Source: Planctomyces sp. (lineage in GTDB: Bacteria; Planctomycetota; Planctomycetia; Planctomycetales; Planctomycetaceae). Taken from it: a stretch of DNA of 64,000 bases. The notes beneath the pieces are model-generated. The model saw nothing but the letters and a program-made list of their open reading frames with translations. It was not told where the DNA came from and did not search any database. Made by a program: the position numbers and the translations under genes. Below, in pieces: positions 35,298 to 49,440 of the stretch (the first letter of the stretch is position 1; each line of letters starts with the position of its first letter). Location: NCBI GenBank assembly GCA_016795105.1, contig JAEUIH010000002.1:186001-250000 (forward strand). The letters are read 5' to 3'.

Positions 35298-37550
35298 ATG
35301 ACGTCCAATAACTTTCTAATGGAATCGTTCAGATTCCTGCCGGAATCGTGGTTTCACAAGGCTACCCAACGAGCCATCGCGGCAGTCCTCTGTGCATCGT
35401 TGGCAACTACTCAGTCTGGTCTCGCACACAGCTCTGCTTTCCTCATCGCTGCCGGTGAATCCTCAGCAGGACAGGAAACCGCTGCCGGAGACGGTGAAGC
35501 TGCTGTGATTGAAAATGAAATGATTGCGATCCTGCAGTCGGATGCTGCGTCCGGCGAGAAGGCAATTGCCTGCAAGCGTCTGGCAATCTATGGGAGCGGC
35601 AAGTCGGTCGCTCATATTGTTCCTCTGCTCTCAGACCCGCAACTCTCATCCTGGGCTCGTATTGCACTGGAGGTCATTCCTGGCAACGAAGCCGATGAAG
35701 CGCTGCGAACCGCGGCGCAGGGACTGCAGGGACGAATTCTGATAGGTGTGCTGAATTCCATTGGTGTTCGTCGGGATGCCGGAGCAGTTGACGTCCTTGT
35801 GACGCATCTCCGTGGTCAGGACAGCGATGCTGCGTCTGCCGCTGCGATCGCGCTTGGGAAGATTGGAAACGATAGTGCTCGTACCGCTCTGCTCGAAGCT
35901 TTGATAGACCCTGCCGATGCAGCATCCACCTCTGCCGTTGCAGAAGGCTGCATATTGGCAGCTGAACAGTTACTTGCTGACAATCGAGTAGAAGATGCTG
36001 CCACCACATATAATCTTGTGGTCAATAGCCAGGCTCCTAAACAGAGAATTCTCGAAGCGACCCGAGGAGCAATTCTTGCCCGCGGCGATGCCGGAATTCC
36101 TTTGCTGATCGAAAAGCTTCGGTCAGACGACAAAGCCATCTTTCAGATTGCCCTCAGCACAGCTCGCGAAGTCAAAGGAAATCAGGTTGATGTGGCACTG
36201 GCCGGCGAGCTATCCGGCGCCGATCCTGAACGTGCTGCTCTCATCGTTTACGCAATGGCCGACCGCCGCGACACCGTCAGTCTTGAGACAATGCTCGAGA
36301 CTGCAAAGAGCGGCGCACCACCAGTTCGGCTTGCGGCTGTTCAGGCACTGCGAAAGATCGGCAATGAAACGTGTGTCCCCACGTTGATTGAACTGGCCCA
36401 GGACTCGGACGGGGAATTGGCAGTTGCCGCACGAACAGCGCTGGCGGAGCTACCCGGCAAAGAAGTTGACGGCCAAATCGCATCACTGCTGTCAAAGGCC
36501 TCAGGTCCTCGATTCGTACTTTTGATTCAATTGGTTGGCGAACGACGGATCGATGCCGTTTCCACTCTCATCAAGGCACTCGAGAACCCGGACGCTTCAG
36601 TTCGTAAGGCGGCTGTCGTGGCACTCGGCGAAACTGTGCCGCTCGACAAGCTCTCGGTATTGATCCAGCAGGCAACATCTGCAAAGAACGACGCTGATTC
36701 AGATACTGCCTTTACGGCTCTCAAGACTGCCAGCGTGAGAATGGGTGATCGGGAAGCGTGTGCAGGTCAGCTGTCAGCTGCCCTGGACAGAACAGCTTCT
36801 GTACCTGCAAAGTGCAGCCTGCTGGAAGTTCTTGCCGCAGTCGGTGGAACAAAGTCGCTGGAGGCAATGAATAAAGCAGCCCGTACCAACACGCCGGAAC
36901 TGCAGGACACCAGTAGTCGGCTGCTTGGGGAATGGATGACCGAAGATGCTGCTCCAGTTCTGCTGGATCTCTCGAAGTCAGCTCCGGGGGAAAAATACAA
37001 GGTACGTGCATTGCGAGGATATATCAGAATCGCACGCCAGTTCGTTTTGCCCGAAGATCAGCGAGCCTCAATGTGTCAGCTGGCATTTGATAATGCTCGC
37101 CAGACAGCCGAGAAAAAGCTGGTCATCGACATCCTGAAGCGGTATCCAAACGTGGAATCGCTGAAGCTGGCCGTTCGGGCTCTTCAGTCAGCGGACGTGA
37201 AGTCTGAAGCAACTGAAGCCACATTGGTCATCGCTCAGAAAATTGGCAGTGGAAATCCCGCTGTTCAGGACTTGCTGAAGAACGCAGGTCTGGAGAAGTC
37301 AAAGGTTGAGATCATCAAAGCCGAGTATGGTGCCGAAGGCAGTATGAAGGATGTTACCGAGATTCTTCAGAAAGCCGCAAAAGACCTGCCACTCGTGGTG
37401 CTCGAACCTGAAAACTACAACGCCGCCTTCGGTGGTGACCCTGCTCCAGGAACCCCAAAACAGCTAAAGATTCAGTACCGACTCAATGGAAAAGAAGGCA
37501 ACGTGTCGCTTGCTGAAAATGCAATCGTGATCCTGCCAATTCCGAAATAG
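35298..37550 (+). CDS. Exported HEAT-repeat protein
   Basis: Protein of 750 residues with a signal peptide (hydrophobic segment about 25-45, ending near GLAHSSA). The mature part is almost entirely HEAT/PBS-lyase-like helical repeats, for example 'AASAAAIALGKIGNDSARTALLEAL', 'PVRLAAVQALRKIGNE' and 'SVRKAAVVALGETV'. The last 60 residues form a small non-repeat domain. No catalytic residues are seen; such proteins act as protein-binding scaffolds. It follows the Gfo/Idh/MocA gene by 59 bp and may serve it in the periplasm. Its stop codon abuts, with no gap, the stop codon of the convergent WD40 kinase. Confidence 0.8.
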   Translation: MTSNNFLMESFRFLPESWFHKATQRAIAAVLCASLATTQSGLAHSSAFLIAAGESSAGQETAAGDGEAAVIENEMIAILQSDAASGEKAIACKRLAIYGSGKSVAHIVPLLSDPQLSSWARIALEVIPGNEADEALRTAAQGLQGRILIGVLNSIGVRRDAGAVDVLVTHLRGQDSDAASAAAIALGKIGNDSARTALLEALIDPADAASTSAVAEGCILAAEQLLADNRVEDAATTYNLVVNSQAPKQRILEATRGAILARGDAGIPLLIEKLRSDDKAIFQIALSTAREVKGNQVDVALAGELSGADPERAALIVYAMADRRDTVSLETMLETAKSGAPPVRLAAVQALRKIGNETCVPTLIELAQDSDGELAVAARTALAELPGKEVDGQIASLLSKASGPRFVLLIQLVGERRIDAVSTLIKALENPDASVRKAAVVALGETVPLDKLSVLIQQATSAKNDADSDTAFTALKTASVRMGDREACAGQLSAALDRTASVPAKCSLLEVLAAVGGTKSLEAMNKAARTNTPELQDTSSRLLGEWMTEDAAPVLLDLSKSAPGEKYKVRALRGYIRIARQFVLPEDQRASMCQLAFDNARQTAEKKLVIDILKRYPNVESLKLAVRALQSADVKSEATEATLVIAQKIGSGNPAVQDLLKNAGLEKSKVEIIKAEYGAEGSMKDVTEILQKAAKDLPLVVLEPENYNAAFGGDPAPGTPKQLKIQYRLNGKEGNVSLAENAIVILPIPK

Positions 37551-40500
37551 TCAGCGTGCTCGAGGCGATGTCCACAGGATGACGGTTCCGTCGGCACCGG
37601 CGGAACCGATCATCCCGCTTCGGCTTACTCGAAGTGACTGAACCGGGGCAAGATGAGCAGTCTCGGCATCAGATCGAATCAATTGCCATGCTTCATAGGC
37701 AGTTGGCTCGGCTCCCGCCAGAGGGTGATGCCAGTTCCACGAGCAAATCCGGCCATCATATCCACCTGTGATCAGCCATGGAGTCTCTTCGATAAAGTCC
37801 GCTGCCAGAATCCCTCCGGAACTGTTTCCGCGAACCATACACTTCAAACGGCACGTCAGTCGCTGCGGGTCGTCAGAGTTTAACTCCATCACCCAGCCGA
37901 TGCTCTCTTCTGTTGAAGGTCGTATTCCTCCAGCGAACAACACATCCCCATCCGCAGTGATGGCACAACACGACAACTGAATTCCGCCGATTGTCTCCTC
38001 TGAATAACCTGCCTTGCTGAGCACCTGTGCAACAGTGGTTTGCATTGAATGATGTTGCTTTGTCTCGAATGCATTAACTTCAGCAACAAAAATTTTTCCG
38101 GTACCTGACACGGCCATCATTCGTCCACAGTTCGCAGCCCAGTGCAAGTCGGCAACTGGTCCATCCAACGGTTCAAACTCACACACCGATCGGACGATTT
38201 CGTCGTCGCAAAACTGCAGGACTTCGATTGCACCGGATGCTCGACCGACAGCACAAACATCAGGCGTCACACGAGAGAACTCCACCTGCAGCGGACGATC
38301 CTGCAGGTCATCCCTCAGTCTGGAGTAAACATTCCCAAAGCCGGATCCCTCTGCATCGGAGCCGTAAACTCGAGTCTGTGTTCCACACACAATCAGTGAA
38401 CTGTGCAGGTTATCCTGGCTGAGTCCAATATCCTGAACGACTGATGGTCCCTGGAATGCATCCAATTGCTGTCCATGTTCCAGGCTCCACAGCCGCGTAG
38501 TATTACCATCAAACGTGATAATCGTATTTTCCGCAGCTGACTTTCCGAAGCGGGCTGAGGACTCCCTGAGATTGGGCCCGGTCATGACGCGTTTTGTCTT
38601 CCAGGTCTCACCTTCCAGAAACACCAGATGACTGCCTGTAGAAACCAATAGTTGCTTGCCGTCGGCACTCCAGTCGGCGGAAATGATTCGTGAACGCTGG
38701 TCTTCATTGAACAGTGGCAGCCGAACCGCCTGAGATGCGCCCGAAACATTCAGACGGTGTTCGTCCAGGAACCATTCGGGAATCTGATTGTCGCCAGCTT
38801 TCGTCGAGATCAGGAGAAGGCGATTCCCGTCCGGATGAACAATCATCTGGTCGATTGGTAACCGCCGAGTCTCCAGTCGATCAAGAACCTTGAGTTTTGT
38901 ATGCCCTGGTGTGTTGGTCTGCCCCAAATTGACTGCGGGGCCGGATGTGCCTGGTCCCGTCGAATTCCTGCCAGACTCAAGGAGCAGCGTTCCGATGGAA
39001 CTGTCAATCTCCCAGTGAATTGCCTGCCCGTCGAGCCCGGCGGAGAGGATCGAGCCGTCCGGCAGGAAATGGACTGAAGTCACAATCGTCTTCGCACGAT
39101 GCTGATGGCCAGCCGCAATCAACGTCTGGCTTTCTCGAGACCAGACACCAACGACACCGTCACGGCCGCCAGTGACGATCTGCTGTCCGTCATCAGACAT
39201 TGCGATGGATGTGATGTCAGCCTGATGAAGTCCGGACAGACGCTGGATTGGTTTTCGATCTTCAGTTGCCCCATTCAGCAATTTGGAGACGCTCCACAGG
39301 TTGCAGAAGTATTCTCCAGAGTCTTCATCTGACCCCGATGTCACCAGCCATTCGCCCGATTTTGAAATCGCAAATGCGTGAACCAGGCCGAGATCTTCGA
39401 GTACCAGCTGCTGGACGTTCTTTGTGGGAGAACTCCCGAGTTCCCAGATTCGGAGAGTCCCGTCGTAACCGGTTGTAAACAACAGTGGCCTCTCACCCTC
39501 GACATATTGTAACCCTGCAATGTTGAACCGGTGACCTTCGGAGAAAAGTTCGGATGTTGGAACTTCAGCCTGATGACTATGCACGGGCTGCCCCAAGGCC
39601 ACATCCCAGAGTGCAACCGTTCCGTCCATCGACGCCGTCGCAATGATCTTTCCATCTCTGCTGAAATCGAGGCTCTTAATGGCACCTCGATGAATGTCTC
39701 GTTCGCCATTCAGAATGCGATACTGAGTCTCTGGTGGCTGAGCATCTGACGAACCGGCATTCTTGACTTGCATCGATGTCAAATGAAATGCGTCTCGAAT
39801 TTTTCTGCGATCCTCATCGAGTTCCTGCAGGTCCCACAAACGACTTGACTGGTCTGAACTGCTGGACGCCACATACCTGCCTTGTTCATCCAGAAAGACG
39901 ACCTTCTGGATGCTGTTTCCGTGGCCATTGAGTATCTTCTCAGGTATCAGTTGTTTGCCCTTTACCAACCAGACGATCACAGACCGATCATCCGAACCGG
40001 TGACCATCTTCATGCTGTCTCGGCTCCACGCCAGCGAATTCACTGGTCTCCGATGAGTCTTCAAAGCCGGACCGTCTACATCTGCATTGTCGGATTCGTC
40101 CGTGGGAGCATGCTGCTGCAGATGCAATGGATGTTCAAAGGGAAACGCATCGGTCCCCGGTCGGCCGGGATTGACTGCCTCGTCACCCGACTTGGAGTAC
40201 CGACGTGATAGAGCCAGCAGTTCACCGTTGTGACTGTTGGACACCACCAGCCAGCCGCCATCGGGTGAAACCGAGAGCTTCAAAGGCGGGAAATTTGCAT
40301 CACGCGGAAGTCGCAGTTGCCCGAGGCGATGAATTCGCTCACCAAACTCAGCCGAATCGCGAATCCCCCATGCCAGAATGTCGGACGACTGGCCTCCCCG
40401 AGAAGCGGCAGTGAGAAAGCTGGTAGCACCGGGGAGCAGGGCCACATCCTTTACTTCAGAAGGAAGCACCAGATGACACAACTCTTCGCCGGATGCTGCC

Positions 40501-43175
40501 CCAAAAACGCTGACACGGCCGTCGGAACAACCAGTGATGATATGCTCATCGACCAGATCCATTGCAACAATGCGTTCCGGATGATCAAACATCAGTTCCG
40601 GCTGGTCACGTTCAACGTTCCATTTCAGGAGTTGAGTTCCGGAGCAAACCATTAACGTGTGCGGATTGCTGAACTGCAGGGCCGACACCGGCTGATTGAG
40701 CTTTAGTCTTCGGGAAACCTCTGACCATTCCCCGTTCTTCGCAGGATTGCTGATCACCGTGACGTCTCCGGCCTGATTGCCCAGAGCAAGCCATTCCAGA
40801 TCAGGACTTACTGCCTGAGCCTGTATTGGTGATTCTTCCTGTCGAGTCTTCTTAAGCAACTGAGCCTTTTGAGTTTCCAGTTCACTCGTTCGCTCAAGCC
40901 GCATCTCTTCCGGGAGTTGCTTCAGCACATCACTGTTGAGTGTGCGGTCGATCGATCGCACTGCATCCGTATAGTTCTCATTCAGAGTCAGTCCCCGGAT
41001 TTCCTGAAACTGAATTTCCACCTCTGCCACGCGGGCAGCCACCTCAGCCGCCTGCTGGCGAACAATCGCCTGTTGAGACCTCTGTTCGGCCTGTTCTGCC
41101 TGAGTTGTCGCCATTGCGGCAATTTCTCTGGATGATGCCGCTTCGTTAGCTGCCAGCTTTGCTTCAGCGATCGCAACTTCCGTATCTTTTCGTGCCTGAA
41201 GGGCGGCGGCCTCTGCGGTACTCGCTTCCTGTAACGCTGCTGTCGCCCTTGCTTTTGCGCTATCGGCTTCGACTCGAGCAATTTCAGCATCTGACGCTGC
41301 TCTGGTGGCAGCCTCCACCGCTGTATGTGCCTCAGCCATAGCTCTTGCAGCGTCAGCTCGACGGGCAGCCACCTGAGTATTCAGGTCAACAATGATGCCA
41401 TTGTCATAGATCGACTTCGCCCCCAACAGCACCACCGCGATGACCGCCGACAATGCAGTCCACTTGATTCCGCTGCGCAACTGTTTTGCGGACCTAAGCC
41501 GGCGGGACAGCTCAACGAATTCATTCCCCGTCTCCAGCCCGGTAATCTGCAGACCGAGGTCAAAGTCACCTTTTCGACGAGCAAGTTCTGCATATTGAAA
41601 TCGAGTCGTTCGTAGTCCCGAGGATGACACCGAATTCCCTGGCCAGATTCGAATAGCCTCCTCGTGCAGAGCAGCGGCCGTTTGATAGACGCTGTAATCG
41701 GATCCAGTCGGCGGAATACTGGCAGTCAGCTCCTCAGCACGCTGGCTGAGTCGACGACTCTCCTCATGACGCTGAAAGTTTCTCACCGAGTGTTGAAATT
41801 CGAGCACACTGCCGTACCGATCCTTCGGAGCAGACATGATTGCTCTACAGGCAATCTCATACAGTTCGCCCGAACATTCCGTCTGCCGAATGATGTTGCC
41901 TCTCAACACTTCATCAAGTGACTTCCAGAAGTCTGCAGTTGTCTTGAGCGACTTTGCATCGGGAAATTCATGAGGCGGCAATCCAGTGACGATCTCAAAC
42001 AGAATTGCTCCCAAAAGATAAATGTCACTCCATTCTCCGATCAGCTCCGGAGGCCCTGTCCATAACTCCGGCGACATATACGCAGGTGTTCCCGCGCCAA
42101 ACGATGCGACAGGGGATCGGAAATTCGGATCGGCTGCGTTCGGAGCTGGAACTGCAAGTCCCCAGTCCAGAACAAGAACCTCGCCGAATTCACCCAGCAT
42201 GATGTTTTCCGGCTTCAGGTCTCTGTTAATGACCCCATGATGATGCGCATATGCTACTGCATCGCAGACCTTGTGCAGAACATCCAGGTTCTCTGCAAGC
42301 GTCATCGTACGAATCTGACGGTTCCACGGAATCCCATGGACGCGTTTCATCGCATAGTACGGTATTCCGTCCGAGGTCTCAGCAAGGTCATGAATCGGGA
42401 TGATGTTCGGATGAACAAGATTTGCTGTAACCAAAGCCTCAGAAAGAAACATCTCACGCCGCTGAATTTCGGCTCGCGACCTGTTCCTGCCGGTACTTCC
42501 TCCAGACGCATGTGTGGAACCCGTCCCCGTCGATGGCTTTAAGGTCTTGATTGCAAGTTCGCGATTTAGTGATCGCTGCCTCGCGATGTATACGACCCCC
42601 ATCCCTCCTTCGGCCAGCTTCTCAACGACTTCAAAGTCAGCATCGTCCGCGACTCCAAATGGTCCCTCCCCGGAAACCGCTCGACGCCGAATGGTAACGA
42701 GTTCATCAAACGCGACGTCTCCTCGAGCCATCCAGATCTGACTGCTGAGACTGATCCCCTGCACGCCTCGAGTTCCACCAGGGCCGGGAGAAGCCGCCGG
42801 AGTAACTGGTGCTGCCTGACCAACTACTGTTGCCGGGCCAGCCGGTGTTGCGAACCCCGGCGTACCTGCGAGCCCCGATGTACCTGTGGAACCAGACGTA
42901 CCTGTGGAACCAGACGTACCTGTGGAACCAGACGGCGCTGCCGGTTGAGGAGGGCGCACGATTGTTGCGGCTTCAAATGCAGATTGATCAGCCGATGCAC
43001 CGGTCGCATGATCTGCCGGTCCAATCAGTGTTGCATCCACCGCAGATGGTTGGGGTTGCTGGCCGGTCTTTTGCTCGTCGGGTCGCTGGGCAGGCTGCGG
43101 TACAAACGTTGCGTCGATATCAAAATCGTCGGGGTCTTCCGATCGGCCGGTAATCGTGGCACCTGGGTCAATCAT
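37551..43175 (-). CDS. Ser/Thr protein kinase with WD40 sensor domain
   Basis: Transmembrane kinase of 1874 residues. Residues 1-180 are low-complexity with five spaced 'AT' motifs (Thr7, 23, 49, 71, 116) and a Gly-Ser-Thr repeat (83-105). The kinase domain (about 181-460) has GGMGVVY, Lys210 in AIKTLK, and the catalytic loop NRDLKPEN, where the usual His is Asn. DFG is replaced by DWG. A membrane segment lies at about 578-596, an Ala-rich coiled coil at about 600-730, and at least ten WD40 blades fill 790-1872, probably outside the cytoplasm. The start overlaps the stop of the upstream Calx-beta gene (ATGA), so translation is probably coupled. NRD and DWG variants can still be active, so activity is uncertain. 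Confidence 0.88.
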   Translation of the reverse strand: MIDPGATITGRSEDPDDFDIDATFVPQPAQRPDEQKTGQQPQPSAVDATLIGPADHATGASADQSAFEAATIVRPPQPAAPSGSTGTSGSTGTSGSTGTSGLAGTPGFATPAGPATVVGQAAPVTPAASPGPGGTRGVQGISLSSQIWMARGDVAFDELVTIRRRAVSGEGPFGVADDADFEVVEKLAEGGMGVVYIARQRSLNRELAIKTLKPSTGTGSTHASGGSTGRNRSRAEIQRREMFLSEALVTANLVHPNIIPIHDLAETSDGIPYYAMKRVHGIPWNRQIRTMTLAENLDVLHKVCDAVAYAHHHGVINRDLKPENIMLGEFGEVLVLDWGLAVPAPNAADPNFRSPVASFGAGTPAYMSPELWTGPPELIGEWSDIYLLGAILFEIVTGLPPHEFPDAKSLKTTADFWKSLDEVLRGNIIRQTECSGELYEIACRAIMSAPKDRYGSVLEFQHSVRNFQRHEESRRLSQRAEELTASIPPTGSDYSVYQTAAALHEEAIRIWPGNSVSSSGLRTTRFQYAELARRKGDFDLGLQITGLETGNEFVELSRRLRSAKQLRSGIKWTALSAVIAVVLLGAKSIYDNGIIVDLNTQVAARRADAARAMAEAHTAVEAATRAASDAEIARVEADSAKARATAALQEASTAEAAALQARKDTEVAIAEAKLAANEAASSREIAAMATTQAEQAEQRSQQAIVRQQAAEVAARVAEVEIQFQEIRGLTLNENYTDAVRSIDRTLNSDVLKQLPEEMRLERTSELETQKAQLLKKTRQEESPIQAQAVSPDLEWLALGNQAGDVTVISNPAKNGEWSEVSRRLKLNQPVSALQFSNPHTLMVCSGTQLLKWNVERDQPELMFDHPERIVAMDLVDEHIITGCSDGRVSVFGAASGEELCHLVLPSEVKDVALLPGATSFLTAASRGGQSSDILAWGIRDSAEFGERIHRLGQLRLPRDANFPPLKLSVSPDGGWLVVSNSHNGELLALSRRYSKSGDEAVNPGRPGTDAFPFEHPLHLQQHAPTDESDNADVDGPALKTHRRPVNSLAWSRDSMKMVTGSDDRSVIVWLVKGKQLIPEKILNGHGNSIQKVVFLDEQGRYVASSSSDQSSRLWDLQELDEDRRKIRDAFHLTSMQVKNAGSSDAQPPETQYRILNGERDIHRGAIKSLDFSRDGKIIATASMDGTVALWDVALGQPVHSHQAEVPTSELFSEGHRFNIAGLQYVEGERPLLFTTGYDGTLRIWELGSSPTKNVQQLVLEDLGLVHAFAISKSGEWLVTSGSDEDSGEYFCNLWSVSKLLNGATEDRKPIQRLSGLHQADITSIAMSDDGQQIVTGGRDGVVGVWSRESQTLIAAGHQHRAKTIVTSVHFLPDGSILSAGLDGQAIHWEIDSSIGTLLLESGRNSTGPGTSGPAVNLGQTNTPGHTKLKVLDRLETRRLPIDQMIVHPDGNRLLLISTKAGDNQIPEWFLDEHRLNVSGASQAVRLPLFNEDQRSRIISADWSADGKQLLVSTGSHLVFLEGETWKTKRVMTGPNLRESSARFGKSAAENTIITFDGNTTRLWSLEHGQQLDAFQGPSVVQDIGLSQDNLHSSLIVCGTQTRVYGSDAEGSGFGNVYSRLRDDLQDRPLQVEFSRVTPDVCAVGRASGAIEVLQFCDDEIVRSVCEFEPLDGPVADLHWAANCGRMMAVSGTGKIFVAEVNAFETKQHHSMQTTVAQVLSKAGYSEETIGGIQLSCCAITADGDVLFAGGIRPSTEESIGWVMELNSDDPQRLTCRLKCMVRGNSSGGILAADFIEETPWLITGGYDGRICSWNWHHPLAGAEPTAYEAWQLIRSDAETAHLAPVQSLRVSRSGMIGSAGADGTVILWTSPRAR
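42880..42933. repeat. Three perfect 18-bp tandem repeats inside the WD40-kinase gene
   Basis: GTACCTGTGGAACCAGAC occurs three times without a mismatch (starts at 42880, 42898, 42916). It encodes the repeating Gly-Ser-Thr-Gly-Thr-Ser linker before the kinase domain. Perfect in-frame copies suggest recent slippage, so linker length may vary between strains. Confidence 0.9.
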
Positions 43176-46100
43176 CGGAAGTACTTTCGCATGAGACGGT
43201 CGCTCCGAGTCCAGCGATGAGATTCAATTTCGGTGAGTCGTACTGCACGATCGCTGAACGTCTCACCATTCAGACTTGTCGATGTTGTGTTGTCACCTCC
43301 ACCTTCCGGCAGTTCTGGTTCCGGCGGCTTCGGCTCCTCGTGTTCCTCAGGCTGTTGAAAAGGAACATCCCGAAGCTGAGGTGTTTCTCCCGAATTCTCT
43401 TCAACTTCGAATGCCGGCCCCGGTCGACCTCCCGTGATTTCAAATTCAACGATCGGACGTTCGACTCGCTGACCACCCGTCTCCGTGACGAGCCAGATCT
43501 CGTATCCGGACCCATCCTGCAGTTCGACGCGGCTGCGGACGAATCGTTCAAGAGCCTCTCGAGACCCAATCAAACGTCGATCCACAATTTTTTCGATTAC
43601 GATCTCGGCTGGTCCATCAATCTGAAACTGACGGCGAATCTGAAAATACACTTCCGTACCGAACGCACTCTCTACAGCACTACCACTTGTGAATTCAGAA
43701 ATCACAGGACGATCCGGCACTGCACTGGTTTCGGGCGGCGCAGGAACCGTCGGCCGATCGTTTCGCGGAACTGCTCCTGTTGCAAATAGAGCGGCTGGTG
43801 CTGGCGTAACGGTCGGAATTGTGAACACCACAACTCCATTCTCAAACTGGGAGTCTCCAGTCAACACATTATCCGAACTGGCAAGGTCTCGGCCGTCAAC
43901 GATCTCTGAAACCCCACCCTGCTGAATCACGATCCCGCGGACATTCACTGATGGATGATGCCCAACGCTGAAATCAACCGGAATCAAAGTCCGCTCCTGA
44001 ATTCTCTGGAACAGAGTGAAGTCCGCAGTCGTATAGATGTGACCAATCTGAACCGTCTGGTCGCCGTTCGGGATCAGGAACTGTTGAAGTCTTTCAGAAC
44101 TCACCGGGTGATCAATCCCCAGTCGTGCCACATGGTTCTGGGTTGCTCGGTCCTGTACGACCCCAGTCTCGTCTATCGGGTCCTGCCAGTCGATCGTGAA
44201 CAACAGGTTCTCTTCCCCGATCTGACCAATCAGGACTTCGAATGCATTCAGATACGCATTGAATCCTTCCCAGTTCCAAAGTCCATTGTCAGATGTGACT
44301 GCCAGTTGGTTCGATGCGAAGAGGAAAAACGCTGTCGACGCAACCCCTGGCTGCGGGCGAGGTCCGAACTGTCGAGCAACCCCGCCGTCAGTCCTGACCA
44401 CAATTTCACCCAGAATTCTGACCATGCCTTCGGTCAGGTTGTTTTGTGTCAGTTCGGGTTCTGCGGTTACGGATTCATCGGAATCCGCAATCAGTATGAT
44501 CTGGTCTCCAGTTTCATGATTTGATCGTGCCGCGTTCTCATCCGTCGATATCGTAATCGGAGCTGCCGATCCATCAATGGTCAGATGACCATCGCGCGAG
44601 CCAATCTGAATCAATTCGCCGGACGTTGAATCCACATCTTCGACACTATCACCTGCGTAAATCGAAGCCGTAATTAAGACATCTCCTACCGCATTCGCGA
44701 TAAACTCAAACTGAACAACGACTCCAACACCCCCGGCTGCTGTGCCAATTTCCAGATCATCAATGTCATTCCACCGGAAGCTCTCCGGGCCATTTGCGGC
44801 GAGTCGGTCAACATCGTTATCTGCGTTGATGAGATCGAATTGTCCGGTACCGGTAGCAAACAAGGCTGTCGACAGAATCTTCGAATTCTCCAAAGCTGAA
44901 ACGGCCTGCTGAGTCACTCTCGAGTCAGAAGTCAGGACGAGGTCATTGCCGTCGGTTTTGATTCCTGTTCCATCACAATCCAGATCGGCAACCTCCGTGT
45001 TACCACTGAGAGTCAGCAGCAGGTCACCTGTGACCGCCACGTCGATCTGTCCGAAATCAGGCCCTGATATTCCCGGCTCCGCTCCTGCCAGTCGATCCAA
45101 AGAGTGAAACAGGATGGCCTCGGACTGGTTTGACTTCAGAATGGTCCGTTGAGCAGAAATTTCTATCGGCGTCACGCTTGACAGGTCTGCGCCAACGAGT
45201 TTCATTTCCCCTGAAACGACTGTCTGCACTGGTAAAGTCAAACTACCAATGGTCACGATGGCAAGGTTTCGTACATCCGAAAGAACTGTCGAAATGCTGA
45301 TATCAAAACTGCTCTGGAAATACAGACTGTCGCCTCGAAGCGTACCGAGCTCTGTACTTCGAAGAAGTTGCACAGCGGTATCGTCTCCAGAACTGACTGC
45401 CAGAAAATTCGCGTCGATTTCAATTGAATCAACTGGACTTTCACGCAGGACGTTGTCATCCATAACGCCGACAGAACCACCTGCAGTGATCGAAACCACT
45501 CCTGTAGCAGAATACAGATTTGCCGAGTTCCCGTTCAGATCGACCACAGATCCTGCAGTGAAGAGTTCGATACTCCCCTCGGAAAGGATCTCCTCCAACT
45601 CAAGATCCACGACATTTCGAATCAGAACAGAGCCAGCATAAGCAGAAATCCGGCTAAGGTGATTCTGATCATTCGCCAATCGTACCTCTCCGATTCCGGC
45701 ATCAATGACCAGTGAGTTTTGGTCGGCATTAATTTCTTCAACGGTAATCGCTGCACCTTGAGAAAGACCATTCTGAGTTGTCGACAACCGCACGTTGTTA
45801 TGCAGTGTGACAAAAGCTTCAAACTGCTGACTGCCGCCGGTTGTAATCTCCAGGGCATGAATCCACACTTGCTCCGACTGAATTCGGAGGCTTCCAGAGA
45901 AGAGAATGTTGCCCTGAACTTCAGTCAGATCTGTACCGGAGCCCGCAATCAGCTCCAGACTTCTAATCTGATGTGCAGATTCAGCTGATACAATTGTAAA
46001 TCGATCTTCTCCATCGACAGTTGTTGTGGAAACCGTCAGAACACCAACTTCACGAATGCTGAGATCAGGCAGATCCACTCCACCAGAATTTGAGGTCAGC

Positions 46101-48868
46101 GTCAGCGCTTCCCCTGCTGCGGCATCGTGCAGGTCTGTGCCGTCTTCAATCCGGACCATATCATTGCCGTTTGCTGTCAGGACATCGACAGTGCTGAATG
46201 ACGATACAGCGATCTCCTCGACGCTCAGCAGACGAATCGTCGTCTGTCCTGAACTCGAGTCATCAATCACGACCGTTCCATGGTCCGCATTGACTGTGTC
46301 GGAATGAAACTCGAACGTCTGAAGCTGGTCACCACGGAACGCTACAACGTCGTTTCCATCCCTCATGTCAACGATCACCTGACCGGTCACCGAAGACAGC
46401 GGAACGCGCAGTGAGCTAACCGGTTCTGCTGAACCAGTAAAAAGATTCGCGACGTCAGATGTGATCACCAGCTCAATTGTCGACGTATCAATAGCGAATG
46501 TCAGCTTATGGTCTGCTCCACCCTGAGCTTCATCCGAGATCACCAGATCCCCACCCACATTTCGCACGAGAATCTCAGTATCGTCATTGATGATGAGATT
46601 CGTTGCTGGATGATTGATCTGCTGAATGAGCAAACCGGCATCAACGAATGGGTCACCTGCACTGAGATTGCTGAGTACAAGAGTGAAATCTTCTGACGTT
46701 TCCAGCCAGGTGTCTGCGATCACTGAGACCGTAACCGATTGGGTCTCACCAGCATTGCCCTGAAATGTAAGCACGCCGGAGGTCGCTTCAAAGTCCTGAA
46801 AAACACCAGGGGCCGATGTTGCAGATCCATCAACTGTGTTAAAGCTGACTGACAATCCCCCCTGAACCGCTTCTGAGAGAGTCACATCGATCTGAAACGG
46901 AGTTGTCGTTCCGTCGCCTTCTGCAGCGATGACACTCACAATCGAAAGGGACGAACGATCATCGTTCAGAATTACAAATTGTGCCTCGCCGTTCACTAAT
47001 GCAGCCTGCCCACCGGAGGAAAATCGCTCCAGAGTGAGGTTCAGTGACTCATTGCGTTCAACGGTTCGATCGCCATTGATTAATACCGAAGCGCTGGCGG
47101 AAGTCTGTCCCGCGGCAAACGAAACCAAAATTCGCTGAGCAACAAAATCGTTGCTCGAAGTTGTGTCACCTGGAAATTCGCTGACCACGATCTCCACAGA
47201 TGTACTGGCCTGAATGTTGCCGGATCGAAGGATGGTTATGGGATGAACAGAGGTCCCGACGTTGCCTTCTGCAGCCTGATAGACGCTATTCGAAAACTGA
47301 TAGATCGGAATACCGGCCGATAGAACAACATCATTTCCATCGCCGCCTTGATATGTCAAAACAAACAGTTGATTATTGATCGCCAGACTGGCACCTTCAC
47401 TCAGCCCCTGAAACGTCCCCTGAATCGGGTCGCTGCCATCATTTTCAATCAGCGTAAAACTTGTGTTGACGACCGGAACAAATCCGGGTTGCAGAGTCAG
47501 ATTCAGTATGCTGCCAATCGTCACCGTTCCATTTACAGTGATCAGTTGATCGGCGTCGGCTGGAAGTTGTGGTTGTAATTCAGCACGGAACTCTGAGTTT
47601 GGACTCAGAATCAAATCGCTTACAGACAGGCTCCCCGAGTCAGCCCCAGGAGCCAGAATGCCACTGCCATCGACGCGAAGATCTGAATCCAGAATTCCGG
47701 TTCCAGCAACAATGGCGTCACCCTGAACGATGAGCTCTTCAGCCGTTGCCTGACTCGAACTGCTGCTTTCTTCGGTAAACATAAAGAGCCCCGAATGGAG
47801 TTCTACGGTTCCCTGACTCGCAGTGATCGATTCCACATGAACGTCATCTGAGGCCGCCAGAAATTGGTCCCCGTCAGTCAAGGAAGTGCCACTGATGGTT
47901 GTCAGAGTGTCCACATCGAATCGAAATGGCTGATCACTACTGCCAATCTGGCCCCCCGCTTCAACTTGAAGTGTGTGACCGGCAATTGCAGGAGCTAACG
48001 AACCGCCGACGTTCGAAACAGAACCCGACGAACGAAGTTCCATGTTGTATCCTTCACTCGTGTTGTGAAGGGTCACGCTGGAATCCGACTCAATGGTTAC
48101 GTCACCCGATGCGATCCATTGAAGCGAGGATGTCTCGAACACATCGTTTGAAAAGGTTCCCAGATGGATTGAGGCCCCCTGAAGTACAGCACTTCCTGCA
48201 ACCCTGAAAACTGAACCTGCCTGCCCGGAGATTGCGTCGCTCGCATGCAGATGAGAATCTCCGGTGACAAGAATTCTTCCGGTAGTGAGATCATCCCGAT
48301 CCCGAAAGTTCAACTCGGTGACTTCTGCATTGAGTACATTCACATCGGTGAAGCTGGAATCGAATTCAACCGCTTCAACACCGATGATCGACAGCCGCGC
48401 AACCGAAAGACCGGATGGCCCGTCAACGACTCGACTTAACGGACCGGATTGTCCATCGATGACAATCTCCGCGATTCCTCCATTCCCACTGCCGACACCA
48501 TTTCCATTTCCAAATCCTGAAACTGTCAGTGTTCTGCGATCCTGAGACAAATCGAACAGTGAACCGTTTGATTCTTCCCAGATGCCGGATTCGAGTGAAA
48601 ACTGAAAACTGCCGGTGCTGGCGTCCGAAGACGCCTGCAGGACATCACCTGAGTCAAAGCCATCAAGAGTGAGTATCCCGGCAACAAGTCCGAAACTTGC
48701 ATCCGGCAGACGGCGGTCTTCGAGCCTCATCGCATGCAGCCGACGATCCGTACGGCGAGCAATCGAGGCCAGCCATTTTTTGAGTGACAAGGATGCCTTG
48801 CGAATTTCGAACTGAAGAAAGTTCATTTGGCAAGCAAAATCCGATCGGAAAATGAAAATCCGTAGCAT
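43172..48868 (-). CDS. Giant exported surface protein with Calx-beta domains
   Basis: Protein of about 1898 residues. The N-terminus is basic and contains MRLEDRRLPDAS, a version of the 'LE-R' motif that opens many giant planctomycete surface proteins. Residues about 60-520 look like autotransporter/haemagglutinin beta-helix sequence. Two Calx-beta domains follow (about 520-780, each with an acidic 'DD' end and 'AEGN/AEGD' start). More beta-rich repeats run to about 1600, then a Pro/Glu-rich tail (about 1845-1870) and a basic C-terminus. No dockerin, LPxTG or PEP-CTERM signal is seen. The start at 48868 has AAGGA upstream; 48826 is possible, and the longer reading to 48997 runs into an inverted repeat. 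It overlaps the WD40 kinase by 4 bp. An adhesive or structural surface role is inferred. Confidence 0.78.
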   Translation of the reverse strand: MLRIFIFRSDFACQMNFLQFEIRKASLSLKKWLASIARRTDRRLHAMRLEDRRLPDASFGLVAGILTLDGFDSGDVLQASSDASTGSFQFSLESGIWEESNGSLFDLSQDRRTLTVSGFGNGNGVGSGNGGIAEIVIDGQSGPLSRVVDGPSGLSVARLSIIGVEAVEFDSSFTDVNVLNAEVTELNFRDRDDLTTGRILVTGDSHLHASDAISGQAGSVFRVAGSAVLQGASIHLGTFSNDVFETSSLQWIASGDVTIESDSSVTLHNTSEGYNMELRSSGSVSNVGGSLAPAIAGHTLQVEAGGQIGSSDQPFRFDVDTLTTISGTSLTDGDQFLAASDDVHVESITASQGTVELHSGLFMFTEESSSSSQATAEELIVQGDAIVAGTGILDSDLRVDGSGILAPGADSGSLSVSDLILSPNSEFRAELQPQLPADADQLITVNGTVTIGSILNLTLQPGFVPVVNTSFTLIENDGSDPIQGTFQGLSEGASLAINNQLFVLTYQGGDGNDVVLSAGIPIYQFSNSVYQAAEGNVGTSVHPITILRSGNIQASTSVEIVVSEFPGDTTSSNDFVAQRILVSFAAGQTSASASVLINGDRTVERNESLNLTLERFSSGGQAALVNGEAQFVILNDDRSSLSIVSVIAAEGDGTTTPFQIDVTLSEAVQGGLSVSFNTVDGSATSAPGVFQDFEATSGVLTFQGNAGETQSVTVSVIADTWLETSEDFTLVLSNLSAGDPFVDAGLLIQQINHPATNLIINDDTEILVRNVGGDLVISDEAQGGADHKLTFAIDTSTIELVITSDVANLFTGSAEPVSSLRVPLSSVTGQVIVDMRDGNDVVAFRGDQLQTFEFHSDTVNADHGTVVIDDSSSGQTTIRLLSVEEIAVSSFSTVDVLTANGNDMVRIEDGTDLHDAAAGEALTLTSNSGGVDLPDLSIREVGVLTVSTTTVDGEDRFTIVSAESAHQIRSLELIAGSGTDLTEVQGNILFSGSLRIQSEQVWIHALEITTGGSQQFEAFVTLHNNVRLSTTQNGLSQGAAITVEEINADQNSLVIDAGIGEVRLANDQNHLSRISAYAGSVLIRNVVDLELEEILSEGSIELFTAGSVVDLNGNSANLYSATGVVSITAGGSVGVMDDNVLRESPVDSIEIDANFLAVSSGDDTAVQLLRSTELGTLRGDSLYFQSSFDISISTVLSDVRNLAIVTIGSLTLPVQTVVSGEMKLVGADLSSVTPIEISAQRTILKSNQSEAILFHSLDRLAGAEPGISGPDFGQIDVAVTGDLLLTLSGNTEVADLDCDGTGIKTDGNDLVLTSDSRVTQQAVSALENSKILSTALFATGTGQFDLINADNDVDRLAANGPESFRWNDIDDLEIGTAAGGVGVVVQFEFIANAVGDVLITASIYAGDSVEDVDSTSGELIQIGSRDGHLTIDGSAAPITISTDENAARSNHETGDQIILIADSDESVTAEPELTQNNLTEGMVRILGEIVVRTDGGVARQFGPRPQPGVASTAFFLFASNQLAVTSDNGLWNWEGFNAYLNAFEVLIGQIGEENLLFTIDWQDPIDETGVVQDRATQNHVARLGIDHPVSSERLQQFLIPNGDQTVQIGHIYTTADFTLFQRIQERTLIPVDFSVGHHPSVNVRGIVIQQGGVSEIVDGRDLASSDNVLTGDSQFENGVVVFTIPTVTPAPAALFATGAVPRNDRPTVPAPPETSAVPDRPVISEFTSGSAVESAFGTEVYFQIRRQFQIDGPAEIVIEKIVDRRLIGSREALERFVRSRVELQDGSGYEIWLVTETGGQRVERPIVEFEITGGRPGPAFEVEENSGETPQLRDVPFQQPEEHEEPKPPEPELPEGGGDNTTSTSLNGETFSDRAVRLTEIESHRWTRSDRLMRKYFR

Positions 48869-49440
48869 CGCATTGTTTCGTCCTTGACCCCCATAAGGCA
48901 AGCAAAAAAGCAGCAGACACTCTCCGAGTGCCGTCCGCCGAGGGCATCGAATCGTTGGTTGAATTCGAATCGCAGCCAGGGTTGGCGGTTTGACCACGGA
49001 AGACGCGGAAAAAACGGAAGAATCGCAGAAGCACCCGGTTGTGCTTTTCCGCGTCTTCCGTGTGTTCCGTGGTTACCCATCACGCTGGCTACGCGTTGGA
49101 TCCAGCCGGAATCAGCTCGCCCTATAAAACCTCTGCGGCTCAAGAAGAATTCAACCGTGAGTGGTACAGCAATGGTATCACGTCACAAGCTCGGTTCACG
49201 AGGCAAAACAGCAGCGGGTGTTCGGCTGGGTAGTGTTCAAGCGGCATTAAATCCCGGGAATTGCCATTGCGAAGCGTCTCCGCACAATCCGATCGATCGA
49301 TACTATTCAGAGAGTCTGCGGGAGGAAATTTTCCAGATTGGCAACTTGCCCGAGAGGGGTCTGGAATCAAAACTGAACGGAGGTTACTTTCCGTGCTTCG
49401 CGGAGGCCCCCCAATTCGGTTCAACCTTCAGGAAATCCTT
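48869..49440. other. Divergent intergenic region
   Basis: About 570 bp between the Calx-beta gene and uppP. It holds the inverted repeat at 48995-49062 and a TATAAA-like stretch near 49123. I see no gene in it; reading frames here are composed of the repeat or have no homology I recognise. Confidence 0.55.
48995..49062. repeat. 18-bp perfect inverted repeat (REP-like)
   Basis: CACGGAAGACGCGGAAAA (48995-49012) pairs perfectly with its complement at 49045-49062. An inner stem AAGCAC/GTGCTT (49029-49034 and 49041-49046) also forms. The repeat extends on the right into TGTTCCGTGG, so more than one fold is possible. It resembles a sequence I recall as dispersed in planctomycete intergenic DNA. 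Confidence 0.8.

What the first reader, a model, noticed from the sequence alone, without database searches (positions are those of the whole stretch)
37551..48868. Giant Calx-beta surface protein translationally coupled to a WD40 receptor-like kinase
The stop of the ~1900-residue surface protein and the start of the 1874-residue kinase share four bases (ATGA, 43172-43175). Such overlaps usually mean coupled translation and related function. The kinase is predicted to cross the membrane once, with its WD40 part outside, so the surface protein could be its ligand or its client. I know of no described system of this shape.
Basis: partly seen in the sequence, partly recalled or inferred. Interest (0 to 1): 0.6.

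Follow-up and report, generated by a model that had tools for sequence, protein, structure and literature searches.

The report
Giant surface protein paired with kinase
Many planctomycete bacteria keep, side by side, a gene for a very large surface protein and a gene for a membrane-crossing signalling kinase, linked by an unnamed domain at the end of the surface protein, which looks like a cell-surface sensing system not yet described.

Summary
On the minus strand a surface protein of about 1,884-1,941 residues (43172-48997) ends in the ATGA that starts an 1,874-residue kinase (37551-43175). The pair is not local. The last ~350 residues of the surface protein form a domain with no Pfam or NCBIfam match in the window. 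Loci chosen by this domain alone have the same long kinase directly downstream in 34 of 34 cases from seven other families, 9 of 9 fresh loci and 19 of 19 named contigs (9 of them new). Calx-beta is incidental: it is absent from 6 of 6 other full-length partners. An exact four-base overlap occurs in 7 of 71 pairs; order and closeness are what is kept. Most likely the domain ties the giant protein to the kinase's outer WD40 propellers, so that the kinase reports on it; binding is inferred, not shown. Exceptions exist: five own-family loci have the domain without a kinase beside it. I found no printed description.

The parts
43172..48997 (-). giant surface protein gene (1,941 aa from GTG 48997; alternative ATG at 48868; best start by similarity ATG at 48826)
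48698..48745 (-). N-terminal RRLHAMRLEDRRLPDA, resembling the planctomycete export motif RRLxxExLExRxLLA
   Evidence: motif as quoted in PMC8567305; 9 of 12 partners with a listed start match an LExRx[LVM]-type pattern
46589..47305 (-). two Calx-beta domains (46589-46924, 46958-47305)
   Evidence: absent from 6 of 6 other full-length partners scanned
43394..44431 (-). conserved C-terminal domain (RTDGGVA, GEENL..IDW, HxS, IRR, GYEIWL, VERPIVEFEI); the stretch aligned across the wider family is 43409-44248
   Evidence: alignments A2, A3; no Pfam/NCBIfam match in the window protein
43172..43175 (-). ATGA overlap of stop and start codons
37551..43175 (-). WD40 receptor-like Ser/Thr kinase gene, 1,874 aa
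41808..42635 (-). protein kinase domain (residues 181-456), catalytic loop VINRDLKPEN, DWGLA
41418..41474 (-). single predicted transmembrane helix (residues 568-586); positive charges on the kinase side in the set
37554..40883 (-). predicted extracytoplasmic WD40 beta-propeller region, preceded by an Ala-rich, coiled-coil-like stretch (the latter by eye)

Best explanation
The window holds one copy of an old two-gene unit of the class Planctomycetia: first a very large surface protein with a variable body and a conserved C-terminal domain, then its dedicated transmembrane WD40 Ser/Thr kinase. Shown: gene order and closeness across families, the shared domain, the kinase architecture, correlated divergence of the two. 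Inferred: both are made from one mRNA; the surface protein leaves the cytoplasm by the planctomycete export motif while its C-terminal domain stays near the inner membrane; there it touches the kinase's WD40 propellers; the kinase thereby senses presence, load or loss of its surface partner and phosphorylates cytoplasmic targets (and perhaps Thr motifs of its own N-tail).
For: Loci chosen by the domain, blind to the kinase: kinase directly downstream in 19 of 19 named contigs (10 of the 19 have the contig length of loci already seen), 9 of 9 fresh loci, 34 of 34 loci in seven other families. Loci chosen by the kinase: 72 of 85 upstream proteins carry the domain (the 51 rows of that model come from this set), and 68 of 77 form one blastp cluster without any model. 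Controls: 0 of 19 distinct kinases. Kinase and C-terminal distances agree, Mantel r 0.718, highest of 2,000 permutations 0.226; nearest neighbour identical in 44 of 71; the window pair and the second pair of its genome have different relatives in both trees. Topology 81 of 81.
Against: No binding, expression or phosphorylation data. Five own-family loci carry the domain with no kinase in the stretch held (L187, L207, L349-L351; L207 has only about 2.1 kb of contig left), and 13 of 85 kinases lack the partner next door, one of them (L192) at a contig edge. The Mantel value is not corrected for the species tree, and 27 of 71 nearest neighbours differ. The C-terminal anchor is uncertain: 45 of 71 upstream proteins have both a hydrophobic stretch and a basic tail, the window protein only the tail. 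The model of the domain is weak (pLDDT 56).
Confidence: 0.5

Rival explanations
1. The kinase controls making, export or anchoring of the giant protein from the cytoplasmic side, and its WD40 part senses something else; the conserved C-terminal domain is a sorting or anchoring domain that does not touch the kinase.
For: 45 of 71 upstream proteins end in a hydrophobic stretch and a basic tail, as anchoring signals do. The domain occurs without a neighbouring kinase in five own-family loci. G058 has its related kinase on another contig.
Against: A general sorting domain should sit on many giant proteins of a genome; the genomes with a hit show one to four matches, mostly one, though only six first-look candidates per genome were scored. 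The domain's divergence follows the kinase.
Confidence: 0.3
2. The kinase phosphorylates the giant protein itself (its basic, Ser/Thr-containing C-terminal tail in the cytoplasm) as its main substrate.
For: 63 of 71 upstream proteins have at least six Lys/Arg in the last 45 residues; the window's tail reads RWTRSDRLMRKYFR.
Against: L231 and L244-L246 lack such a tail; whether the tail is cytoplasmic is unknown.
Confidence: 0.1
3. Ordinary neighbours: the adjacency is a relic without functional meaning.
For: Gene order can persist in closely related genomes.
Against: Kept in at least eight families while the bodies of the proteins scanned differ; control kinases show nothing similar.
Confidence: 0.03

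Closest known systems
PFNA operon of bifidobacteria (pkb2, fn3, aaa-atp, duf58, tgm); PMC8430577, passages seen
   Same: A transmembrane Ser/Thr kinase with a variable outer part encoded next to a secreted surface protein (FN3), proposed to sense at the cell surface.
   Different: Kinase first, five to eight genes, FN3 domains, bifidobacteria. Here two genes, surface protein first, much larger proteins, WD40 outside.
WD40 Ser/Thr kinases of Planctomycetota (Ca. Uabimicrobium, Gemmataceae and others); PMC11032199, passages seen
   Same: Kinase domain predicted in the cytoplasm, WD40 mostly in the periplasm, mostly single-spanning.
   Different: The passages seen describe no paired surface protein; 'neighbor', 'gene order', 'operon' and 'upstream' occur 0 times in its main text.
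Planctomycete giant genes and the export motif RRLxxExLExRxLLA (Studholme et al. 2004 as quoted in PMC8567305, passage; giant genes in PMC5177795, and PMC7717043, passages)
   Same: The partner is a large-gene product with a close version of this motif.
   Different: The passages seen link no giant protein to a kinase ('kinase' 0 times in PMC5177795).
WD40 gene neighbourhoods in Planctomycetes; PMC5587647, 12 of 19 passages seen
   Same: Reports kinases, sigma factors and DUF1501 around WD40 genes.
   Different: No surface-protein partner in the passages seen.

Membership tests
Hanks-type (eukaryote-like) bacterial Ser/Thr kinases | Pkinase domain with (H/N)RDxKPxN and DxG motifs | tested here: met
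   PF00069 1.3e-28; VINRDLKPEN and DWGLA. HRD reads NRD in the window's subfamily. Activity was not tested.
PASTA (PknB/Stk1) receptor kinases | NF033483 above its cut-off | tested here: not met
   163 bits against a cut-off of 450; WD40 in the outer part.
Planctomycete transmembrane WD40 kinases | N-terminal kinase, one membrane helix, C-terminal WD40 outside | tested here: met
   Prediction only.
PFNA operon | kinase + FN3 protein + AAA-ATPase + DUF58 + transglutaminase in one operon | tested here: not met
   No FN3 among the families shown for either protein (25 of 50 shown for the kinase); the gene after the kinase is on the other strand (35298-37550 +). The neighbours' own families were not searched.
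Calx-beta surface proteins | Calx-beta domains | tested here: met
   85 bits, two stretches; but 0 of 6 other full-length partners, so not a feature of the system.
Planctomycete exported giant proteins | N-terminal export motif RRLxxExLExRxLLA | tested here: inconclusive
   Close, not exact: 7 of 10 specified letters by eye (sequence; motif). NCBIfam gave no family.
PKD/Ig-like domains (C-terminal domain) | known fold or family | tested here: inconclusive
   No Pfam family in the window member; two families hit one member each of 51; Foldseek none at E<=0.001; best VIA Z 7.3, rmsd 3.7 over 103 residues, a generic sandwich.

The most novel reading that the evidence does not exclude
A bacterial receptor-and-surface-fibre signalling system: a class-wide unit in which a very large surface protein, through a new C-terminal domain, acts as the built-in ligand or mechanical input of a receptor kinase with (by my strand count) three WD40 propellers, roughly as a cell-matrix receptor does in animals, reporting adhesion or envelope integrity to the cytoplasm.
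Probability: 0.3. Interest if true: 0.85.

Novelty: new variant of a known kind. Interest (0 to 1): 0.63.

Why it matters
These bacteria have many kinases (the kinase query gave 49 to 123 matches in each of the four genomes of the genus; some are WD40 or partial matches) and many giant genes (PMC5177795), and the inputs of the former and roles of the latter are mostly unknown. This unit ties one kinase lineage to one giant-protein lineage across at least eight families, so one kinase with a likely partner, and a new domain to test, can be picked out of the crowd. If the two bind, a planctomycete WD40 receptor kinase would gain a defined input and a giant gene a function.

Tried and rejected
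Rejected: Calx-beta as the link (absent from 6 of 6 other full-length partners); the 4-nt overlap as the conserved feature (7 of 71); accidental adjacency (control). Left open: a known fold for the C-terminal domain (model pLDDT 56; Foldseek without a match at E<=0.001; VIA rows of Z 7.3 and below are generic beta-sandwiches; PDB sequence search 0 matches for A4 and 4 marginal ones for A3).

Weak points. TM calls are Kyte-Doolittle windows, not a trained predictor; at a threshold of 1.7, 3 of 19 kinases showed no helix, at 1.5, 1 of 82; the 82 include kinases without a partner. The genome scans with A3 scored only six first-look candidates per genome, so their tallies are lower bounds, and the match list was cut. 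Other families are numbered, not named; f2 is taken as Pirellulaceae only because one contig has the length of the Stieleria maiorica genome. Family f101 (two weak hits) was not fetched. L156, L191, L216 began inside the kinase and L192 at a contig edge, so their upstream gene could not be judged; L173, L209, L223 were not parsed (one search shows the domain in an ORF of L173 and of L223, none in L209). Not every kinase row was fetched. The Thr-motif pattern was chosen after looking at the sequences. Paper searches gave nothing on the pair; most subscription papers are not held.

Full report
What is there. On the minus strand two long ORFs overlap by ATGA at 43172-43175. The first in the direction of transcription codes for a surface-type protein (1,941 aa from a GTG; by similarity to L231 the start is more likely the ATG at 48826, 1,884 aa). 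The second codes for an 1,874-aa protein with a kinase domain, one predicted membrane helix at residues 568-586, an Ala-rich coiled-coil-like stretch (by eye) and a long WD40 part. The next gene (35298-37550) lies on the other strand and ends at the base beside the kinase's stop codon, so the unit has two genes.

The conserved part of the surface protein. A search of own-genus genomes found the C-terminal part of the protein beside a kinase in a relative. The twelve loci examined first all had a protein with this C-terminus directly upstream of a kinase (in L086 the kinase is in two frames). The alignment of 13 such C-termini has invariant columns in the motifs RTxGGVA, EENL, W, HxS, RR and WL. 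Pfam has no family for the window's domain and NCBIfam none for three partners scanned.

Kinase-centred test. A search with the kinase, from its kinase domain on, hit 83 of 120 genomes of the family at E<=1e-50. I fetched the upstream stretch of 77 further kinase hits plus three domain hits. Of these 80 loci, the first twelve and the window (93 in all), 85 gave both a kinase frame and an upstream frame. In 72 of the 85 the upstream protein carries the domain at E<1e-3; this is partly circular, since the 51 rows of the model come from this set. Free of any model, 68 of 77 upstream proteins fall into one blastp cluster. The 13 misses are L148, L149, L153, L157, L192 (contig edge), L193, L202, L204, L215, L217, L222, L224 and L227. 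In L148 and L149 a 3-oxoacyl-ACP synthase gene stands there instead; L227 has a large upstream ORF without a recognisable domain. For 71 loci with an upstream frame over 450 aa and a gap between -400 and 700 (L215 and L227 among them), the median gap is 97 nt, 69 are at most 300 nt, 14 overlap and 7 overlap by exactly 4 nt; starts are the longest possible, so some overlaps may be overstated.

Domain-centred tests. These choose loci by the domain, blind to the kinase. (a) One scan of named genomes: 19 loci, 19 of 19 with the kinase directly downstream on the same strand; 10 of the 19 have the contig length of a locus already seen, so 9 are new. (b) Phylum scan: hits in 28 of 392 genomes, namely 23 of 28 own-family genomes, 5 of 12 same-class genomes of other families, and none of the other 352 (the denominators assume that the 344 unlisted rows lie outside the class, as the order of the listed ones suggests). 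Nine of its loci were new: 9 of 9 have the kinase (L301 is a short contig with only the end of the partner). (c) Class scan, completeness 90 or more: 147 of 397 genomes have the domain, in families f1, f2, f4, f101, f105, f106, f108, f113 and f118. I fetched 40 of its loci, taken from the rows shown with room on the contig: 34 from f2, f4, f105, f106, f108, f113 and f118, where 34 of 34 have a 1,643-2,073-aa kinase starting -149 to +254 nt from the stop; and 6 from the own family, three of them picked because I suspected exceptions, where 3 of 6 have it. Own-family loci with the domain and no kinase match in the stretch held are L187, L207, L349, L350 and L351; L207 is a 5-kb contig with about 2.1 kb left. 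For L187 (G058) a related kinase lies on another contig, so the pair seems split there. How many of the unfetched domain hits are exceptions is unknown.

Control. I fetched 20 loci around other kinases of the window's genome, the next best matches to the kinase; they hold 19 distinct kinases. A codirectional ORF of 700 aa or more ends within 400 nt upstream in 2 of 19 (one is another kinase). No upstream protein is related to the giant partners; two distinct ones of about 215-233 aa matched only L222, itself a miss.

Co-divergence. Tree distances of kinase domains and of the C-terminal stretches over 71 loci (L227 included) correlate at 0.718 (highest of 2,000 permutations 0.226). The nearest neighbour is the same in 44 of 71. 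In the window's genome the two pairs (window and C44) have different relatives; for the window pair the three nearest are identical in both trees, as they are for L197 and L199, while L089 and L090 share only the nearest. Several second copies (L155, L203, L211, L182, L208, L225) do not agree. The species tree was not factored out.

Topology. In 81 of 82 kinases, partnerless ones included, a helix is found after the kinase domain, and in 81 of 81 there are more Lys/Arg on the kinase side (mean 6.0 against 3.0). This places the kinase inside and WD40 outside, in line with predictions for other planctomycete WD40 kinases (PMC11032199, passages). The WD40 part models as beta-propellers (pLDDT 75; Foldseek matches to WD40 proteins); about 21 four-stranded blades, hence perhaps three propellers, is my count of strands. 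The catalytic loop reads NRD in 17 and HRD in 47 of the 64 paired kinases where the pattern matched (7 did not match), and HRD in all control loci.

The giant partner. Of 12 upstream proteins with a listed start, 9 show an LExRx[LVM]-type motif after a basic stretch, resembling the export motif RRLxxExLExRxLLA attributed to Studholme et al. 2004 in PMC8567305 (passage; the original was not read). The body varies: Calx-beta in the window, DUF5649 in L087, a weak DUF7737 in L231, no family in L052, L197, L241 and L242. Of 71 upstream proteins, 50 have a hydrophobic stretch near the end, 63 a basic tail and 45 both; the window protein has the tail only, and L231 and L244-L246 lack the tail. How the end is held at the cell is therefore open.

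Mechanism. Shared order, class-wide conservation, one new domain kept while bodies change, and an outside WD40 face make direct contact between domain and propellers the simplest reading. The step from contact to signalling, and its output, are inference. The main rival is a domain for anchoring or export, with the kinase controlling that process.

Where it is found. Family f1 contains Thalassoglobus neptunius (Planctomycetaceae; contig length of G087:C20). Family f2 contains a genome with one contig of 9,894,293 bases, the genome size of Stieleria maiorica given in PMC7717043, a paper on the family Pirellulaceae (passage); this is an identification by length only.

Novelty. Transmembrane Ser/Thr kinases next to a surface protein are known (PFNA operon), WD40 kinases are known, giant genes are known. 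A dedicated, class-wide pair with its own domain did not appear in what the paper searches listed, nor in the passages read.

Noticed in passing
window 42640-43175 (kinase N-tail) and relatives: The N-tails of these kinases carry repeated Thr motifs (TFVP, TLIG, TIVR, TVVG in the window); 94 in 59 kinases against 24 (sd 4.6) in shuffles, at least one in 41 of 59 (pattern chosen after seeing the sequences). They could be autophosphorylation or FHA-docking sites.
   Followed up: partly
L052 (G000:C44): The window's genome has a second, diverged pair: a 2,964-aa partner and a 1,975-aa kinase 6 nt apart, related to the pairs of G001 and G003 of the same genus.
   Followed up: partly
L187, L148, L149, L351 (genus g56): In this genus the pair seems split: proteins with the domain stand without a kinase, and kinases stand behind a 3-oxoacyl-ACP synthase gene.
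   Followed up: partly
L162 (G019:C453): Two successive ORFs upstream of the kinase both match the domain model (135 and 27 bits), as if the domain had been doubled or the gene split.
   Followed up: no
window kinase, catalytic loop: The HRD motif reads NRD in the window's kinase and its subfamily (19 of 19), but HRD in all control loci.
   Followed up: partly
L086 (G119:C107): The kinase is in two overlapping frames (713 and 1,464 aa), so it is split by a frameshift or an assembly error.
   Followed up: no
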